Positions 51 to 33,136 of a stretch of 37,398 nt of DNA are shown here, in pieces. The notes under the pieces were generated by a model, which was not told the DNA's origin, ran no database searches, and worked only from the letters and a program-made list of their open reading frames with translations. The stretch lies in the IMG/VR virus record IMGVR_UViG_3300006802_000230, positions 1-37,398 of that record; one strand, 5' to 3'. Source of the stretch: a virus. The number at the start of each line of letters is the position of its first letter. Positions within the stretch are counted from its first letter, which is position 1. The position numbers and the translations under genes are program-made.

Positions 51-803
51 ATGAATAAAGAAGAGTCTAACGGAGTTAATAGGTCTGATGGAGTTAATAG
101 GTCTTTCGGAGTTAATTGGTCTAACGGAGTTAATTGGTCTGATGGAGTTAATGGGTCTAACGGAGTTAATTGGTCTAGCGGAGTTAATGGGTCTAACGGA
201 GTTAGTTGGTCTAACGGGGTTAATTGGTCTAGCGGAGTTAATAAGTCTTTCGGAGTTAATGGGTCTAACGGAGTTAGTTGGTCTAGCGGAGTTAATGGGT
301 CTAACGGAGTTAATTGGTCTAGCGGAGTTAATGGGTCTAACGGAGTTAATTGGTCTAGCGGAGTTAATGAGTCTTTCGGGGTTTTAAAATCATTCGGCGT
401 TGATAAAGCACTGTTTCTTGCAAATAAAAAAAGGACATACTCTATTTTTAAAACCCCCGTATCTGAGGAACGATTTAATAAAATTGAAAGCGAGCTGTAT
501 TGTAAGCTCGACGGTTGGAGGCCAGCTTTTAATAATATAAAATCTTTATACTTAAAACATGGTAGCGATTGGAAAAAAACGCCAATTGAAAATGCTGAAG
601 AACTATCTAAAGAGGAAGCTTGGAGAGATATGCCTCGTGGTGCTATCGATTATGTAAAATCTCTTCCAGAATTTGATAGCGAGATTTTTAAGGAGATCAC
701 AGGCATTGATGTTGCCAAAGAAGAGAAGGTGAAAATAACAATTGATGGTAAAGATATTTTTATATCAAGAGAAAGTGCAGAAGAACTTAAAAAGAATTTA
801 TGA
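51..803 (+). CDS. Hexapeptide-repeat phage protein with a globular C-terminal domain
   Basis: A 250-residue protein starting at ATG 51 with a good ribosome site (gagagggagtt). Residues 6-119 are 19 uninterrupted hexapeptides of consensus S-x-G-V-N-x, with x drawn from N/S/D/F and W/G/R/K/E. The last units degrade to SFGVLK and SFGVDK and run into a non-repetitive domain (about 120-250) with KKRTYSIFKTPVSEERF and an acidic, helical end. Regular six-residue repeats with conserved Gly-Val suggest a stacked beta solenoid, but this is inference. I have an impression of similar repeat-plus-YSIF proteins in other phages but cannot name a function. The last 25 residues (VKITIDGKDIFISRE and following) recur in the ORF at 1082-1201. 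It is an early gene of the rightward operon. Confidence 0.85.
   Translation: MNKEESNGVNRSDGVNRSFGVNWSNGVNWSDGVNGSNGVNWSSGVNGSNGVSWSNGVNWSSGVNKSFGVNGSNGVSWSSGVNGSNGVNWSSGVNGSNGVNWSSGVNESFGVLKSFGVDKALFLANKKRTYSIFKTPVSEERFNKIESELYCKLDGWRPAFNNIKSLYLKHGSDWKKTPIENAEELSKEEAWRDMPRGAIDYVKSLPEFDSEIFKEITGIDVAKEEKVKITIDGKDIFISRESAEELKKNL
66..407 (+). repeat. Tandem 18-bp repeat, 19 units, coding
   Basis: Nineteen consecutive 18-bp units of the type ggagttaattggtctaac fill exactly 342 bp. Several neighbouring units alternate in two flavours (ending aac or agc, with ggg or tgg inside), making a 36-bp higher-order repeat that is identical over adjacent copies near 287-366. Identity at the DNA level points to recent expansion by slippage or unequal recombination. 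Because 18 is a multiple of three, unit gain or loss keeps the reading frame and only changes protein length. Confidence 0.95.
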
Positions 804-19183: not shown

Positions 19184-20068
19184 ATGGCATTAAGTGAAAA
19201 TAGAATTATATTCGGGATTCATTCAATTACGCCTTATCAAAGAGCTGATAGAATGCCTTACGGAGCAATGAAGGTTATCGGAGGGGGAACTCTCTCACTC
19301 TCTGCTGAATTTGAAGACCTCTTTGGAGGCTCTAATAAGTTTGCATGGGCGAGTGAAGCTAAAACAATTTCCTCAGAATTTACTGCAAGTGTAAAAGCTC
19401 TACCTGACTTTTTATTTGAAGTTTTTCTTGGGGCTTGTGTTGCTACAACTTCAACTGCTAACGGCTCTGTAACTGAAGCACTAACGAATGCTAAGGGCAC
19501 GTCCGTACTAAGTGCTACCACAGGGATAGCTACGGCGACGGTTAAATCTGGTAGCGAAGATGATGTAAAGGACGGCATTTACGTTGTAAAAGCTGCTTCG
19601 ACAACTACAGTTGACGTTTATATTCTAAGTGATATTCAGTTCACTCGTGGAACAGATATCTCTTACGAAAACGATGCGCTCAAAGTAACTTCTTCAGCTC
19701 TTACGATCACTACAAGTACAGCTGTTACAATTCCTAACACAGGAATTGAGCTGACTGGTGGATCTGGAACTATTGGAATGACTGCGGATGATACAGCTTA
19801 CTTTAAAGTATCAAGCAATCACGAAGGCGTTTCTACGATTACGATTGGTGAGAGTACGGCAACTTTCCCAGAGCATGGGCAAGCTTGTTACGCTGCTAAA
19901 AGAAGTAATGGAGATCTTTTTGAGATTGATATTCTTAAAGCGGTGGGGAGTGGTTTTCCGATTGGATTAGAAGAAACAGTATTTAGCATCCCAGAGCTTA
20001 CAACTAAACTTTTGTATGATTCTGTTGCAAACGCTGTTGCGAAAATTAGAGCTACGAAAGCGGCTTAA
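19184..20068 (+). CDS. Major tail tube protein
   Basis: ATG 19184 follows taggagaatgaaaa. The 294-residue protein begins MALSENRIIFGIHSITPYQR, with a GTLSLSAEFEDLFGGSNKFA region and a Thr/Ser-rich beta body. N-terminal phrases such as PYGAMKVIGG and SSEFTASVKALPDFLFEVFL match uncharacterised tail tube proteins of siphoviruses. An inserted domain (about 100-200, threonine-rich) is probably surface exposed. It is followed directly by a strong terminator and precedes the tail chaperone, as tube genes usually do. Confidence 0.8.
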   Translation: MALSENRIIFGIHSITPYQRADRMPYGAMKVIGGGTLSLSAEFEDLFGGSNKFAWASEAKTISSEFTASVKALPDFLFEVFLGACVATTSTANGSVTEALTNAKGTSVLSATTGIATATVKSGSEDDVKDGIYVVKAASTTTVDVYILSDIQFTRGTDISYENDALKVTSSALTITTSTAVTIPNTGIELTGGSGTIGMTADDTAYFKVSSNHEGVSTITIGESTATFPEHGQACYAAKRSNGDLFEIDILKAVGSGFPIGLEETVFSIPELTTKLLYDSVANAVAKIRATKAA

Positions 20069-20333: not shown

Positions 20334-20374
20334 AGTTTTTTAAAGGTAAGATGCACTTAATAGGAGAGCGAAAA

Positions 20375-20785
20375 ATGATTATAAATTTTCCAGACTTAAA
20401 TCCATTAGAGGGAACCGTTAAAATCCATGGTAAAACTTACGAGCTTACGACTTTTAATTTGAAAGTTCAATTATGGGTTATGGAGAATTTCAAAACAGAA
20501 GGTAATAAAGATGGATGGAAAAACTATCATGAAATTATTTCTAACGTTGATAACCCTGCTTACATTTTTACAATTTTGGAGACTATTCATAAACTTTTAA
20601 AAGATAAGAGTGATTTTCCATGTGTCGAAGATCTTCGAGATTCTTTTGAAAGGGAAAGAGATCTTTTTATTCATTTAGGTGTTTTTTTACAGGCAATAGC
20701 TACAGCGATAGGGGTCTCTCAACCTGATATAGAAAAGATTCAGGAGGACAAAGATAGAAAAAAGCAAGTGGCGAAGGTGGCGTAA
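20375..20785 (+). CDS. Tail assembly chaperone, short form (136 aa)
   Basis: Start placed at ATG 20375, not 20351, because aggagagcgaaaa precedes it. Equivalent to lambda gpG: the shorter, abundant chaperone that coats the tape measure during tube assembly. The sequence begins MIINFPDLNPLEGTVKIHGK, has a helical middle (VDNPAYIFTILETIHKLLKD), and ends QEDKDRKKQVAKVA. Codons 128-130 (AGA AAA AAG) contain the slippery site. It lies between tail tube and tape measure, the invariable place of this pair. Confidence 0.82.
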   Translation: MIINFPDLNPLEGTVKIHGKTYELTTFNLKVQLWVMENFKTEGNKDGWKNYHEIISNVDNPAYIFTILETIHKLLKDKSDFPCVEDLRDSFERERDLFIHLGVFLQAIATAIGVSQPDIEKIQEDKDRKKQVAKVA

Positions 20786-21075
20786 GAACTCCCTGCTGGG
20801 GGGCCTTATTTGATACCTTCGCTAAAAGATACGGATGGACATTAGAGGAATTTTATAAATTAACTTATAAGCAAGTAGATTTAATGAAAGATGTAATTTT
20901 TCAAAACGATTTAAGAGAAAAGCAGTGGCAAGCTTCACTAAATGATAAGCAAATAAAAGATAACGCTATTCCGCTCAATCTTTCTAAAGAGGAAGAAAAA
21001 GAAAGTGAAGATCTTGCGCTTAAAAAGTTTAAAGAAATGAGAAAAGAATTTTTAAAAAAGAGTTTCAATAAATAA
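20375..21075 (+). CDS. Tail assembly chaperone, -1 frameshifted long form (233 aa)
   Basis: Equivalent to lambda gpGT. Reading in frame from 20375 to the slip site A-AAA-AAG (20758-20764) and then in the -1 frame yields residues ASGEGGVRTPCWGALFDTFA followed by KRYGWTLEEFYKLTYKQVDL and a charged tail to TAA 21073-21075, giving 130 plus 103 residues. GWTLEEFYKLTYKQ has the W-x-x-x-E-x-x-x-L-x-x-x-Q/Y flavour of T-type domains, which recruit tube subunits. The -1 frame has no start of its own before 20884, supporting expression by frameshifting. Confidence 0.85.
20742..20764 (+). promoter_or_regulatory. Programmed -1 frameshift signal: Shine-Dalgarno plus A-AAA-AAG
   Basis: AGGAGG (20742-20747) stands 10 nt before the slippery heptamer A AAA AAG (20758-20764), which is in the correct phase (zero-frame codons AAA AAG). 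The composition and spacing match the E. coli dnaX site, where an internal Shine-Dalgarno stimulates -1 slippage. Downstream, CCC(TGCT)GGG (20791-20800) is a short stem within the -1 frame, so a 3' stimulator is possible but weak. Confidence 0.85.
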
Positions 21076-23933
21076 TGGGAAAAGCAACTACTGCACTACT
21101 GATTAAGCTAAATGGAGATGCGAAAAGCTTCATTGATGCTACTGAGAAAGCCAAGAAACAGACAGCAAGTCTTGAGTCAACACTTAAGAAAAGTGCTAAG
21201 GCATCGGCTGTAATTTTTACAGCTCTAGGGCTGTCGATAGGTGGGGCTGTAACTAGGTTTGCAAATTTTGAAAAAGGTTTTAAAAATGTAGTTACTCTTC
21301 TTGATAAAGGATCATTTTCTACTAAGACATTTACAAAGGGTGTTGATGATTTAAAGAAAGGTGTTTTAAATTTAAGGGCCGCAACAGGAGAGAGTTTTGA
21401 GAGCCTCAACCAAGGGCTTTTTGATTTAATTTCCGCAGGGGTTCCAGCAGAGCAAGCCATAGCGAATTTAAAAGTTGCAACAGATCTTGCTAAAGCAGGG
21501 GCCACAGACACAGCTACCTCAGTAAAAGCTTTGACGGCTTCCCTTACGGCGTTTGGCTCTGAAGCTGGTACGGCTCAAGATATTTCAGAAAAGTTTTTTA
21601 CAGCTCAAAAATTTGGTGTGACCACCGTTGGAGAACTTGCAAGCGAATTTAATAAAGTCGGAGGTCTTGCTAAGCAGTTAGGTTTGTCTTTTGATGAAAC
21701 TCTAAGTTCTGCCACAGCACTAACAGCTAACGGAGCAAAGCCAACATCTCAGGCCTTTACGGAAATGAAAGCCGTAATAAATGCAGTTCTCCTTGCTCAA
21801 CAAAAATTAAGCCAGTTTTCACCAGAAGTTCAGTCGTCACTAGCTCTTGAAAATGTTCAAAGAGTAGGGCTTGTAAAAGCTTTACAGGAAACAAAAGAAG
21901 CTCTTGGGGGGAATGTTCCAGAGCTTTTAAAACTCTTAGGCTCACAAGAGGCTCTAAGTGCAGCTTTATCTCTCACAGGTCAACAAGCTGGGTTACAAGC
22001 AAAAATATTCACTGAGCTTTCAGATGCACAGAAAAGATCTGCAACTTTCGGGGATGCGCTAAAAACACAACAAGAAACAACAAGCGAAGCTTTTAAAAGA
22101 CTCACTGGAAGCGTGGATGTTGCAATTACTAGATTAGGTGAAGCACTTGCGCCAACAGTTATAAGTTTAGCCGATGCAGTAGGAAAACTTGTTAAAAAGT
22201 TTAACGATCTTGATGATGAAACAATTCAGGGGATTGCAAATATAATTAGGTTTACTACTGTTCTTGCAGGTGTAGTTGGCACTTTGTCAGTAGCAGGGAT
22301 AGCATTTTTAAAAATTAGGGGGCTAATTACTGGAATTACTACAGCTTTAAAAGTTGGAAGACTCGCAGCTATCGGGTTCACTTCGTCTTTAACTTTTGGG
22401 CTAAGTGCAATTATAGCTTTTCTCCCTGAGATTATAAACGGTTTTGGGAAACTATGGGATTTTTTCAATCAAGCAGAGCCTAAGAGTCTTACTGAAACTA
22501 ACAAAAAAATAGAAGAACTAAGTAAAAGAAAAGATGATCTACTAAAAAAGAATGAAGAACTTGGGGAAGCATCGAAGGTTAATAATCAGGCAGAGCTTGA
22601 TTCTATAGATAAGCAACTTACAAAGTTAGGTGAGCTTCAAAAATCCTACGATGGAATAAATGTAACTGCACAAGAAGCCTCTAAAGCTGTGCAAGATTTT
22701 AATAGTGCAAATAAAAACGTATTTATTAAAGCTGGGTTTGATGTTGATACTCCTAACCTTGCTCCACTTGGAAAAACCGAAGCAGTAGAAAGTGGGTCAA
22801 CGGACGCAGAAAAGAAAGCAGAGGAAGAGAAGAAACGCATAGCCTCAAAAGAGTTAGAGATAGAGAGAGATAAAGCTGAGAGGATAAAACAGATACGAGC
22901 TAAAAATCTTGAGATTTTATTGCAACAAGATAAGGAAGGACTTGAGGGGGTTGTTGCCCTTAAAAAAGAGGAAGTGGCACTACTTACAAACATAGATAAT
23001 TTAGAAACTGAAAACGCATCAATCAGAAAAAAAGAAAAAGCAAGCGAACTAGAGAGGGTGCAACTTGAGGCGAATGAAAGAGAACTTGATTTTTTAAATT
23101 CTCAACTTGAAGCTAAGCAACTTCTCGAAGAAGAAAAAATGCAAGAGTTCGCCGAGAGAAAACAGGAGTTAAAACTAGAGCAGTTTGAGCTTGATAGAGA
23201 ATTTGATGCAGAACTTAATGCATTAAAAGAAGAAGAGAAAAATGCCCTTGAAGAAAAGGAATTAAAGGATCTTAGAAAATCCCTACTTACAAAGTCTAAA
23301 ATAGATCAAGATTTCGCTGTCAAGAAATTGAAAGGAAAAATAAAAGAAAGAAACGACTTCCTTGCAGATGAAAAAGAACATGGAACAGCAGTTGCAACTA
23401 TTAATAAGTTTTTAAATAAAGCAGAGATTGATAGGGAAAAGGCTTTTGGAGCGCAGTTTATCCAGCTTCAAGCAAGTAGAAATGGGACATTAAGAACAAT
23501 TGGGAAAGCGGCGGCGGTTGCTGAGATAGGTATCTCAACTGCGAAAGGTGCGATCGATGCATATTCCGCACTCGCAGGTATCCCCATTGTGGGGCCTGCA
23601 CTAGGAATCGCAGCCGCCGCCGCTTTGACCGCTTACGGAGTGGAGAGATCTGCACAGGTCGCAAGATATAATCAAGGGGGGCTTGTCGCTCCCTCTATAG
23701 GTGGAGCAAGGGATAGAGTACCATCACTTCTCGAACCTGGGGAAATAGTAGTTCCTAAATCGGAGTCACCGAATTTTATTAAACAGTTTGGTAAAATAGA
23801 TTCCCCTGACGAGGACTCAGGAGAGAATAATAGGCAATTCGTTGAGATTTCCATCGCAGAGGATGCCAGTGAGATATTAGAAGCCCAAAGAACAGAGGCC
23901 AACGTTTTAGGGATTAGGGGAGGTACGCTTTGA
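21075..23933 (+). CDS. Tail tape measure protein (952 aa)
   Basis: Sets tail length and is ejected with DNA. ATG 21075 overlaps the chaperone stop (TAATG). The N-terminal 150 residues match the TP901 tape measure core (FEKGFKNVVTLLDKGSFSTK, LNQGLFDLISAGVPAEQAIA, TSVKALTASLTAFG). Hydrophobic stretches lie near 390-450 and near 810-860 (GIPIVGPALGIAAAAALTAY). A long charged coiled coil spans about 480-780. The end has the typical RVPSLLEPGEIVVPKSES. At about 1.5 angstrom per residue the tail would be near 140 nm, which means a siphovirus. Confidence 0.93.
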   Translation: MGKATTALLIKLNGDAKSFIDATEKAKKQTASLESTLKKSAKASAVIFTALGLSIGGAVTRFANFEKGFKNVVTLLDKGSFSTKTFTKGVDDLKKGVLNLRAATGESFESLNQGLFDLISAGVPAEQAIANLKVATDLAKAGATDTATSVKALTASLTAFGSEAGTAQDISEKFFTAQKFGVTTVGELASEFNKVGGLAKQLGLSFDETLSSATALTANGAKPTSQAFTEMKAVINAVLLAQQKLSQFSPEVQSSLALENVQRVGLVKALQETKEALGGNVPELLKLLGSQEALSAALSLTGQQAGLQAKIFTELSDAQKRSATFGDALKTQQETTSEAFKRLTGSVDVAITRLGEALAPTVISLADAVGKLVKKFNDLDDETIQGIANIIRFTTVLAGVVGTLSVAGIAFLKIRGLITGITTALKVGRLAAIGFTSSLTFGLSAIIAFLPEIINGFGKLWDFFNQAEPKSLTETNKKIEELSKRKDDLLKKNEELGEASKVNNQAELDSIDKQLTKLGELQKSYDGINVTAQEASKAVQDFNSANKNVFIKAGFDVDTPNLAPLGKTEAVESGSTDAEKKAEEEKKRIASKELEIERDKAERIKQIRAKNLEILLQQDKEGLEGVVALKKEEVALLTNIDNLETENASIRKKEKASELERVQLEANERELDFLNSQLEAKQLLEEEKMQEFAERKQELKLEQFELDREFDAELNALKEEEKNALEEKELKDLRKSLLTKSKIDQDFAVKKLKGKIKERNDFLADEKEHGTAVATINKFLNKAEIDREKAFGAQFIQLQASRNGTLRTIGKAAAVAEIGISTAKGAIDAYSALAGIPIVGPALGIAAAAALTAYGVERSAQVARYNQGGLVAPSIGGARDRVPSLLEPGEIVVPKSESPNFIKQFGKIDSPDEDSGENNRQFVEISIAEDASEILEAQRTEANVLGIRGGTL

Positions 23934-31550: not shown

Positions 31551-32291
31551 TTAAACTTCTAATGAATCAGATGCTACACTTTTTGTAGAGGCTGGTTCAT
31601 CTTCTTTTTCATCAACCTTGTATGTAGTAGATTTTATCATCTGGTAACATTTATAGGAAGCTTCCTTTTCAATTGCTGTTGTCTCTCTGCCTTGCTTTGC
31701 TTTAATTACATAGAAGGTATTCCCATCTTTTTCTTGTTCTTCTAGGAATAAATTAAAAACTACGTCACCGCTTGATTTTCCCCAGCTTCTAAGCTGAGCA
31801 ATGAGGGTATTAAGTGCCTTGGCTTGCTTAAAACTCGCACCTTTAAAAGTAACTACCATAGGGAATGGCGCACCGCTTTTTATATCTTTTGGAAGAACTA
31901 CCATATAGTTATAAGTCGGTACTTGCTTCATATGCTTACCATTTTCTTCGTAGTTCCAATCTTCCCCTGCCATGTCAGGAGCCCAAGCTTCACTTCTGAC
32001 GTATATATCTCTTCCTTTTTCAACAACTTCAAAATGTTGGCGAAGTTTGAAAGAGTCTATAATGATTACTTCTAGTGACTCCCCTCTCTCATTTAGCGAT
32101 TCTTCATTGAGTGAGTGCCAGAAAGTTTGACGCTTGACTTTCTCATCCTCAACTACTTTGGTTTTAGACTGAGCTACGAGGATTTTCGGGATAATTATAT
32201 CTTCAAATCTCGTGTCTTGTCCTGCTCCCCAATTGGAAGGGATGGCAATTTCAGTTGTTTGCTTTTTTTCGAGTTCGTTACTTTTAGACAT
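31551..32291 (-). CDS. Putative single-strand DNA-binding or recombination protein (246 aa)
   Basis: The leftward start is ATG 32291 with caaggagaaaaac, a strong site inside the gene upstream. The sequence begins polar (MSKSNELEKKQTTEIAIPSN), then has strand-rich phrases (FEDIIIPKILVAQSKTKVVE, PTYNYMVVLPKDIKSGAPFP) and an acidic, disordered tail (VDEKEDEPASTKSVASDSLE), as SSB-type proteins have. Phage replication operons frequently carry a protein of this type near the polymerase. The assignment is by context and general layout, not by a signature. Confidence 0.55.
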   Translation of the reverse strand: MSKSNELEKKQTTEIAIPSNWGAGQDTRFEDIIIPKILVAQSKTKVVEDEKVKRQTFWHSLNEESLNERGESLEVIIIDSFKLRQHFEVVEKGRDIYVRSEAWAPDMAGEDWNYEENGKHMKQVPTYNYMVVLPKDIKSGAPFPMVVTFKGASFKQAKALNTLIAQLRSWGKSSGDVVFNLFLEEQEKDGNTFYVIKAKQGRETTAIEKEASYKCYQMIKSTTYKVDEKEDEPASTKSVASDSLEV

Positions 32292-32449
32292 GTGTTTTTC
32301 TCCTTGTTGTTGTAAATTACCATTGCTGAAAATGAATGTTCACAGCTAGTAAATTGTATATCTTTTATATTTTTTCCTGTTATAAATAATGACAATTCTT
32401 TTTCTAATATTTCGCAGTTATCGCAGTCAAATATTTTAATCTTCATCAT
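32195..32449 (-). CDS. Small protein, Cse60/DUF2758-like pattern (84 aa)
   Basis: The leftward start is ATG 32449 (a second ATG follows). The N-terminal about 50 residues, MMKIKIFDCDNCEILEKELS, LFITGKNIKDIQF and FSAMVIY, follow the pattern of small proteins related to Cse60 (K-I-K-x-F-x-x-x-x-x-x-x-L-E and the M-I-I-Y end). The last third (SKKSKQLKLPSLPIGEQDKT) is basic and overlaps the downstream gene by 97 bp, so it may be partly non-essential. Role unknown. Confidence 0.6.
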   Translation of the reverse strand: MMKIKIFDCDNCEILEKELSLFITGKNIKDIQFTSCEHSFSAMVIYNNKEKNTCLKVTNSKKSKQLKLPSLPIGEQDKTRDLKI

Positions 32450-32711
32450 TAACTCTTTTCTCGTACTCTTTTCTTTCGTTCTCTAAAAAAGTTATTCCCA
32501 TCCTCATGGCCTCAAGCGGATCGCTTATCTTGTGATTCTTGGCTATATCCATGATCCTAAGTAGATTGTAAAAGTGAGTAAGTTGATAGAAGTTTTTCGT
32601 CTCTCCCTCGTCACACTCGATTACGATATTTGAAAAGTAGTTTATCCCTTTTTTAACATCTGATAAAATTAAGTCTCTTCCTTCTTTAATTATTTCTTCG
32701 TTTGTTTTCAT
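32436..32711 (-). CDS. Helical protein of unknown function (91 aa)
   Basis: The leftward start is ATG 32711 with gagggatca; it overlaps the previous stop by 4 bp. The product is helical (MKTNEEIIKEGRDLILSDVK, then YQLTHFYNLLRIMDIAKNHK) with an acidic end. It belongs to the run of short overlapping genes between helicase and polymerase. Nothing more can be said. Confidence 0.7.
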   Translation of the reverse strand: MKTNEEIIKEGRDLILSDVKKGINYFSNIVIECDEGETKNFYQLTHFYNLLRIMDIAKNHKISDPLEAMRMGITFLENERKEYEKRVNDED

Positions 32712-33136
32712 TTGATCCCTCTTACCGATAGTGTGTTAAATATTTTAGGCTCTGATAGTCCAGCTATGCCACTAGATAAAAAATCAAGGTTATTTTCTTG
32801 CTTGGCCTGTTCTTCTTTCTCTTTGTAGTAGCTGTTAAGCGTTCTTGAGTTTACGCTTATAATATCTTCAAACTCTCCTGACTCCTTGAGGTAACTGAAA
32901 AACTTCTCTTTATCCTCAATTTTCACACTCTTATTTTCTCTAATACTTATGGCTCCTATTCCTGTATCAAAAGACCTCATTCCTGCGTTTTCTAGGTGGT
33001 CTAGGATTTTCTTAGTTAGACTTGTAGCTTCACTGCTTAGCTCTTTCTTTTTGTCGTCTAGCTCTTTAATCTTCTTTTTCAGGTCGAAAAATTCCATACA
33101 TAGTTTTTTCATTGGTTCTAGTAAGTTGCTTTCCAT
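32708..33136 (-). CDS. Conserved phage coiled-coil protein (142 aa)
   Basis: The leftward start is ATG 33136 with aaaggagaag. The N-terminal coiled coil (KLCMEFFDLKKKIKELDDKK) is followed by a compact domain (AGMRSFDTGIGAISIRENKS, VKIEDKEKFFSYLKESGEF) and SVNSRTLNSYYKEKEE. The order coil, beta hairpin, S-x-N-S-x-T-L-N is familiar from uncharacterised proteins in phage replication clusters. No enzymatic residues are apparent; a DNA-binding accessory role is plausible. Confidence 0.7.
   Translation of the reverse strand: MESNLLEPMKKLCMEFFDLKKKIKELDDKKKELSSEATSLTKKILDHLENAGMRSFDTGIGAISIRENKSVKIEDKEKFFSYLKESGEFEDIISVNSRTLNSYYKEKEEQAKQENNLDFLSSGIAGLSEPKIFNTLSVRGIK

What the first reader, a model, noticed from the sequence alone, without database searches (positions are those of the whole stretch)
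20742..20764. dnaX-like -1 frameshift cassette in the tail chaperone gene
AGGAGG, a 10-nt spacer, then A AAA AAG in the right phase. The downstream -1 frame is open to the tape measure start, encodes T-like sequence, and has no start of its own before 20884. Siphoviral tail chaperones commonly use GGGAAAG-like or other slippery sites; the combination with an internal Shine-Dalgarno at the same spacing as E. coli dnaX is unusual for this family. The predicted fusion is 233 residues.
Basis: partly seen in the sequence, partly recalled or inferred. Interest (0 to 1): 0.75.

Follow-up and report, generated by a model that had tools for sequence, protein, structure and literature searches.

The report
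Phage frameshift signal resembling bacterial dnaX
Just before the gene that sets tail length, a group of uncultured tailed phages carries a three-part RNA signal (ribosome-binding-like sequence, slippery A AAA AAG, hairpin), like that of E. coli dnaX, that should make ribosomes slip back one base and fuse two tail-assembly proteins; the process is known, but this full, conserved three-part signal in that gene is a new variant.

Summary
AGGAGG (20742-20747), a 10-nt spacer and A|AAA|AAG (20758-20764) lie in phase in the ORF 20375-20785. The -1 frame is closed by a TAG directly before the heptamer, then open to the tape-measure start. The fusion is 233 aa. I found 14 diverged relatives (other IMG/VR contigs; zero-frame proteins 23-34% identical to this one) with the same layout. 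All 14 have in-phase A_AAA_AA[G/A]. An anti-SD match is enriched beyond what the amino acids require (0 of 4000 synonymous resamplings, and only at this place in the gene); it is AGGAGG exactly 10 nt upstream in six of the 15. The hairpin arms covary (own versus swapped partners, 0 of 20000 permutations). This is best read as a lambda G/GT-type tail-chaperone -1 frameshift using a full dnaX-type cassette. A_AAA_AAG is already known in tail chaperones; an SD at 9-14 nt was uncommon but not unique in my comparison set (Achromobacter phage phiAxp-2). No frameshifting was measured. New variant of a known kind.

The parts
20362..20366 (+). ribosome-binding site (AGGAG) of the zero-frame chaperone gene
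   Evidence: SD energy -7.3
20375..20785 (+). zero-frame ORF, 136 aa, G-like tail assembly chaperone (no HMM family; TAC-like predicted fold)
   Evidence: (no family)
20742..20747 (+). internal Shine-Dalgarno AGGAGG, 10 nt before the slippery heptamer (5' stimulator)
20755..20757 (+). TAG that closes the -1 frame directly before the heptamer, so the -1 frame can only be entered at or after it
20758..20764 (+). slippery heptamer A_AAA_AAG in zero-frame phase
   Evidence: conserved as A_AAA_AA[G/A] in 14 of 14 clade relatives
20769..20824 (+). 3' stimulatory hairpin: outer stem 20769-20779/20814-20824, middle 20782-20786/20805-20809, inner 20789-20793/20798-20802
   Evidence: -30.7 kcal/mol, z -4.96; covariation
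20764..21075 (+). -1 frame extension (103 aa, T-like domain), reached by the shift; no start codon before 20884
21075..23933 (+). tail tape measure protein; its ATG overlaps the -1 frame stop by one base (TAATG) and has almost no SD of its own
   Evidence: (tape measure, E 9.8e-48)
19184..20068 (+). putative major tail protein (assigned by position and relatives only; no HMM hit)

Best explanation
20375-21075 is the G/GT-type tail assembly chaperone unit of an uncultured siphovirus. Most ribosomes stop at 20785 and make a 136-aa G-like chaperone. A fraction slip back one base on A_AAA_AAG and make a 233-aa G-T fusion, which by analogy with lambda links the tape measure to the major tail protein. 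The slip is stimulated from both sides, as in E. coli dnaX: AGGAGG 10 nt upstream pairs with the anti-SD of the translating ribosome, and a hairpin about 4-7 nt downstream resists unwinding. Shown: sequence layout, phase, SD use by the phage's genes, conservation, synonymous-site enrichment of the SD, hairpin covariation. Inferred: that frameshifting occurs, its efficiency, the role of each stimulator, and the chaperone function. Also inferred: because the tape-measure start overlaps the -1 stop and has little or no SD, its translation may be coupled to ribosomes that have shifted.
For: Layout and phase. In-phase A_AAA_AA[G/A] in all 14 clade relatives; no -1 frame start codon before the heptamer in any of them, and in 11 of 14 none within 100 nt after it. 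The codon before the Lys pair always ends in A (joint expectation 5e-5) and the first Lys is always AAA (1e-3). The strongest anti-SD match of the zero-frame gene lies just upstream of the heptamer in 12 of 15 clade members and within the top 1.4% in the rest. Joint synonymous-codon null: summed energy -133.3 vs -86.1 +/- 11.0, 0 of 4000 resamplings as low; the same with spacing fixed at 10 nt. Scanning 28 windows along the gene, z is -4.35 at the site and between -2.6 and +2.3 elsewhere. Amino acids under the SD differ (QED, QGD, EED, DGV, EEE). Hairpin z -4.96. Own-arm pairing averages -16.3 vs -11.5 for swapped partners, 0 of 20000 permutations; z -6.7, with arms slid clear of the true positions giving -1.6 to +1.6. 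Pairs change between GC, CG, AT and TA at the same positions. The phage's own genes use SDs (61% vs 14% of random sites). Position between putative major tail gene and tape measure; weak TAC-like fold matches.
Against: No experiment. The SD is not perfect throughout: L009, L033, L034 and L040 have their best match at about 7 nt, outside the 9-14 nt range given for -1 shifts (PMC5009743, section 36); L008 is at 8 nt; L005 has only GAGG at 13 nt and L032 a weak match. Taken one at a time, synonymous tests are mostly not significant (p 0.02-0.87), because acidic residues supply much of the G-rich sequence. The hairpin is weak or poorly ranked in L008, L010, L011 and L032. Neither protein hits any HMM family convincingly, and the fold match to known chaperones has no E-value at or below 0.001.
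Confidence: 0.88

Rival explanations
1. A -1 frameshift happens at A_AAA_AAG with the hairpin alone, as in other phage tail chaperones, and the AGGAGG is a by-product of a run of acidic residues before the Lys-Lys pair.
For: Acidic residues are common at this place, individual synonymous p values are modest, and several relatives lack a well-spaced SD. A_AAA_AAG tail chaperones without an SD exist: ul36, PG28, LV6, YSD1, Soft.
Against: Joint synonymous null 0 of 4000, and only at this site in the gene. G-rich codons persist when the residues change (QED, QGD, DGV). Exact 10-nt spacing recurs in diverged relatives.
Confidence: 0.09
2. The -1 frame is reached by transcriptional slippage on the A-run (RNA polymerase adds an A), not by ribosomes.
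For: A-runs can cause polymerase slippage (runs of more than 7 A are cited in PMC3711429). More distant relatives L016 and L017 have A9-A10 runs at the site.
Against: The run here is only six A. An anti-SD match and a hairpin at ribosome spacing would have no role. The heptamer keeps codon phase and A_AAA_AA[G/A] form rather than growing into a longer run in the clade.
Confidence: 0.03
3. The -1 ORF is a separate protein, started internally or by re-initiation after the 20785 stop, with AGGAGG as its ribosome-binding site.
For: AGGAGG is a good ribosome-binding site, and SDs near gene ends can aid re-initiation (PMC5009743, section 36). L011 has an ATG in the -1 frame 9 nt after the heptamer start.
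Against: The -1 frame has no ATG/GTG/TTG between 20758 and 20883; 20884 is about 137 nt past the SD and inside the conserved domain. In 11 of the 14 relatives the first possible -1 frame start is also more than 100 nt past the heptamer.
Confidence: 0.02
4. Assembly or sequencing indel, or a decayed gene.
For: The window is a metagenomic contig.
Against: The same two-frame layout recurs in 14 further contigs with strongly diverged proteins that remain open and conserved.
Confidence: 0.005

Closest known systems
Lambda G/GT tail assembly chaperone -1 frameshift (and its relatives in dsDNA tailed phages)
   Same: Position between major tail gene and tape measure, short zero-frame chaperone, -1 overlap near its 3' end, T-like extension up to the tape measure start.
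   Different: Lambda uses G_GGA_AAG with no anti-SD match nearby. Here A_AAA_AAG is flanked by an SD and a covarying hairpin. No detectable sequence family in common.
E. coli dnaX (tau/gamma) -1 frameshift cassette
   Same: Upstream SD, A_AAA_AAG, downstream stem-loop, tRNA-Lys slip (PMC5009743, PMC3711429); the 10-nt SD spacing of dnaX itself is from memory.
   Different: Unrelated gene. In dnaX the shift gives the shorter product at about 50%; here it gives the longer product. The helix spans about 56 nt here.
IS3/IS911-type transposase -1 frameshift
   Same: Many IS elements have a 5' SD (estimated 56%), and IS911 has a structured 3' stimulator (PMC5009743).
   Different: Transposase genes, not tail genes.
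Achromobacter phage phiAxp-2 tail chaperone (Casjensviridae)
   Same: AGGAGG, 10 nt, A_AAA_AAG in phase in the gene before the tape measure.
   Different: No protein homology to this clade detected; weaker downstream structure; the SD is not kept by most of its relatives.
Vibrio SIO-2-like phages
   Same: Among the nearest annotated relatives by tape measure (about 31% identity); A_AAA_AAG at the same place.
   Different: At best GAGG at about 7 nt, absent in several.

Membership tests
G/GT-type tail assembly chaperone expressed by -1 frameshift | Two overlapping ORFs between the major tail gene and the tape measure gene, the second in the -1 frame | tested here: met
   (the major tail gene is assigned by position only)
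G/GT-type tail assembly chaperone expressed by -1 frameshift | X_XXY_YYZ heptamer in zero-frame phase inside the overlap | tested here: met
G/GT-type tail assembly chaperone expressed by -1 frameshift | No independent start for the -1 ORF | tested here: met
   first ATG/GTG/TTG at 20884, inside the conserved domain
G/GT-type tail assembly chaperone expressed by -1 frameshift | Sequence or fold homology to known tail assembly chaperones | tested here: inconclusive
   no HMM family; predicted fold matches annotated viral tail chaperones with probability up to 0.97 but no E-value at or below 0.001; HK97 chaperone 2ob9 only E 4.5
G/GT-type tail assembly chaperone expressed by -1 frameshift | Both products made, the fusion required for tail assembly | not testable with these tools
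   needs mass spectrometry and phage genetics
dnaX-type SD-stimulated -1 frameshift cassette | SD-like sequence 9-14 nt upstream of the heptamer | tested here: met
   AGGAGG at 10 nt in the window; selected beyond protein coding across the clade, though not at 9-14 nt in every member
dnaX-type SD-stimulated -1 frameshift cassette | A_AAA_AAG slippery heptamer | tested here: met
dnaX-type SD-stimulated -1 frameshift cassette | Stem-loop starting a few nt downstream | tested here: met
dnaX-type SD-stimulated -1 frameshift cassette | SD and stem-loop each stimulate frameshifting | not testable with these tools
   needs reporter assays
dnaX gene itself | Encodes the DNA polymerase III tau/gamma subunit | tested here: not met
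   no Pfam hit for the zero-frame or the -1-frame protein

The most novel reading that the evidence does not exclude
This clade shifts frame far more often than lambda (tens of percent, like dnaX, rather than a few percent). Because the tape-measure start overlaps the -1 stop and has little or no SD of its own, tape-measure synthesis is coupled to shifted ribosomes, so that one RNA signal sets the G : GT : tape-measure ratio together.
Probability: 0.3. Interest if true: 0.65.

Novelty: new variant of a known kind. Interest (0 to 1): 0.5.

Why it matters
Tail-chaperone frameshifting is common, but its stimulators are poorly defined. In the review passages read here (PMC5009743) the 5' SD is listed for dnaX, prfB and IS elements, not for phage tail genes. 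This clade gives natural, diverged versions of an SD-plus-heptamer-plus-hairpin cassette, with built-in variants (SD at 10, 7-8 or about 13 nt; stop codon directly after the heptamer in some), suited to testing how spacing and stem strength set a product ratio. It also shows where gene calling by ORFs alone would lose the second half of this gene.

Tried and rejected
P0001 against phages, IMG/VR peptides, Pfam, PHROGs and PDB sequences: no relative. Relatives were found only through the tape measure, the putative major tail protein and the -1 domain; the tape measure alignment found none in bacterial genomes. Rfam over the site: nothing relevant. Per-sequence synonymous tests for the SD were too weak alone (Fisher about 0.016, my arithmetic), so a joint test with gene-wide controls was used. 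L014 was left out of the statistics as identical to L013 over the site, L012 as the same contig as L034, and L041 as too distant (it lacks the SD and hairpin). I did not fetch tail regions of the toxin-carrying phages VT1-Sakai, PVL and PV83, which PMC3483164 lists with AAAAAAG sites, out of caution, so SD presence there is unknown. Xu et al. 2004 and Baranov et al. 2006 were not among the papers my searches returned and I did not look them up by id; either may already mention an SD at some phage site.

Full report
WHAT IS THERE. The string AGGAGG-N10-AAAAAAG is at 20742-20764 on the + strand and nowhere else in the window; none of 100 dinucleotide shuffles contains it. AGGAGG alone is no more frequent than chance. 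The zero-frame ORF runs from ATG 20375 (with AGGAG upstream) to TAA 20785 and encodes 136 aa. In it the heptamer reads AGA|AAA|AAG, the correct phase for tandem -1 slippage. The -1 frame carries a TAG at 20755-20757 directly before the heptamer, then is open to TAA 21073-21075. It has no ATG, GTG or TTG before 20884. The only stretch in which a ribosome can cross from one frame to the other is therefore 20758-20785, and the heptamer is the only slippery site in it. 130 plus 103 codons give the 233 residues stated.

From 20769, 4 nt after the heptamer, the RNA folds into a long hairpin ending at 20824 (-30.7 kcal/mol, z -4.96, no shuffle of 200 as stable). The zero-frame stop lies inside it. 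With the SD and heptamer this completes the three-part signal known from E. coli dnaX.

SURROUNDINGS. The window is an IMG/VR virus record of 37,398 bases with terminase, Mu-type portal, head protease and major head protein, a tape measure at 21075-23933, and DNA polymerase A, D5-like primase-helicase and SNF2 helicase genes. The gene before the frameshift unit (19184-20068) has no HMM hit but is conserved at 56-67% identity over nearly its full length in relatives and sits where a major tail gene is expected. The phage's genes use Shine-Dalgarno sites (61% at or below -6 kcal/mol against 14% of random positions), so its host has a working anti-SD.

RELATIVES. The 136-aa protein finds nothing by itself. 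Tape measure, tail gene and -1 domain searches gave 14 distinct clade relatives plus more distant ones. Zero-frame proteins are 23-34% and -1 domains 24-39% identical to those of the window. In all 14 the same two-frame unit lies before the tape measure and the heptamer is A_AAA_AA[G/A] in phase. None has a -1 frame start codon before the heptamer, and in 11 of 14 the first one is more than 100 nt after it; the exceptions are L011 at 9 nt and L002 and L032 at 63 nt. The preceding codon always ends in A (expected jointly 5e-5) and the first Lys is always AAA (1e-3).

THE SD IS SELECTED AS RNA. AGGAGG stands exactly 10 nt before the heptamer in the window, L010, L013, L015, L028 and L038. L002, L011 and L032 have other G-rich anti-SD matches there (the last weak), L009 has a GAGG at that distance besides a stronger match at 7 nt, and L005 has GAGG at 13 nt. 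The best anti-SD match of the gene lies just upstream of the heptamer in 12 of 15 members and within the top 1.4% in the other three. Residues encoded there differ (QED, QGD, EED, DGV, EEE). Keeping each protein fixed and redrawing synonymous codons from each phage's own usage, the summed energy of -133.3 is not reached in 4000 draws (null -86.1 +/- 11.0); the same holds with spacing fixed at 10. Twenty-seven other windows along the gene give z between -2.6 and +2.3, against -4.35 here. Singly the tests are weak, and exceptions exist: L009, L033, L034 and L040 have the best match near 7 nt, L008 at 8, and L032 is weak.

THE HAIRPIN IS SELECTED AS RNA. The 3' arm is encoded by the conserved D-x-F-A motif and the 5' arm by the first codons after the shift. 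Own arms pair at -16.3 kcal/mol on average, swapped arms at -11.5; none of 20000 permutations reaches the observed sum. With either arm slid clear of its true position the same test gives z between -1.6 and +1.6, against -6.7 at the true position. At single pairs GC, CG, AT and TA alternate. Individual z-scores are as low as -4.4 but poor in L008, L010, L011 and L032.

MECHANISM. Most ribosomes make the 136-aa protein; some slip and make the 233-aa fusion. By analogy with lambda (PMC5009743) the short form would coat the tape measure and the fusion recruit the tail tube protein. The chaperone identity rests on position, architecture and a weak fold match: predicted structure pLDDT 82; viral tail chaperones among the top hits with probability up to 0.97 but no E-value at or below 0.001; HK97 chaperone 2ob9 at E 4.5. 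Efficiency is not predictable here; lambda's product ratio is 30:1 (PMC5009743), two tested HK97-like chaperones gave 6-7% and dnaX about 50% (PMC3711429). The tape-measure ATG overlaps the -1 stop in the window (TAATG) and, where it could be located, overlaps or lies inside the -1 ORF end in the relatives, often with a weaker SD than the chaperone gene; coupling to shifted ribosomes is an inference.

HOW UNUSUAL. A_AAA_AAG is ordinary for tail chaperones: present in SIO-2-like Vibrio phages, several Casjensviridae and ul36 and listed for others in PMC3483164. An SD at 9-14 nt is not ordinary in the comparison set: clear in phiAxp-2, partial in AXY1, at about 7 nt in AH2, SIO-2, VhaS-a and PJ32, and absent or insignificant in lambda, TP901-1, ul36, YSD1, Soft, PG28 and LV6. 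That set is small and hand-picked. The review passages read here name dnaX, prfB and IS elements as users of 5' SD stimulators, with 9-14 nt for -1 shifts (PMC5009743, section 36), and PRFect scores an SD feature for tail chaperones (PMC10885494), so the possibility was anticipated. Verdict: real, well supported by comparison, unproven by experiment; a new variant of a known kind.

Noticed in passing
window 21073-21077; relatives: The tape-measure ATG overlaps the -1 frame stop (TAATG) and has almost no SD (-2.4). In relatives where a start was located it overlaps or lies inside the -1 ORF end, hinting that tape-measure translation is coupled to frameshifted ribosomes.
   Followed up: partly
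L016:5511-5520 and L017:5512-5521: More distant relatives have runs of nine to ten A at the chaperone frame junction, candidates for transcriptional slippage rather than ribosomal frameshifting.
   Followed up: no
L004:5671-5677 and L006:5679-5685: More distant relatives use G_GGA_AAC or G_GGA_AAG at the same place without a well-placed strong SD, suggesting that the slippery site type switched within this wider lineage.
   Followed up: partly
L028:2474-2483, L033:2486-2495, L034:2489-2498, L040:2489-2498: In this subgroup the zero-frame stop codon directly follows A_AAA_AAG; three of the four also have their best SD match at about 7 nt instead of 10.
   Followed up: partly
L059:2048-2070: A more distant contig has GGGGGG about 5 nt before A_AAA_AAG at the junction before its tape measure, with a strong downstream fold (-24.3).
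   Followed up: no
L070:1377-1399: AGGAGG-N10-A_AAA_AAG near the end of a zero-frame ORF, with a 460-codon open -1 frame after it; looks like a frameshift site in an unrelated large gene.
   Followed up: no
window 51-803: Predicted protein with a weak collagen-like repeat match, below the Pfam cut-off.
   Followed up: no
window 31551-33136 (- strand): Two genes resembling the Pam3 phage gp33 and gp34 families; the gp33-like one also matches Sipho_Gp157.
   Followed up: no
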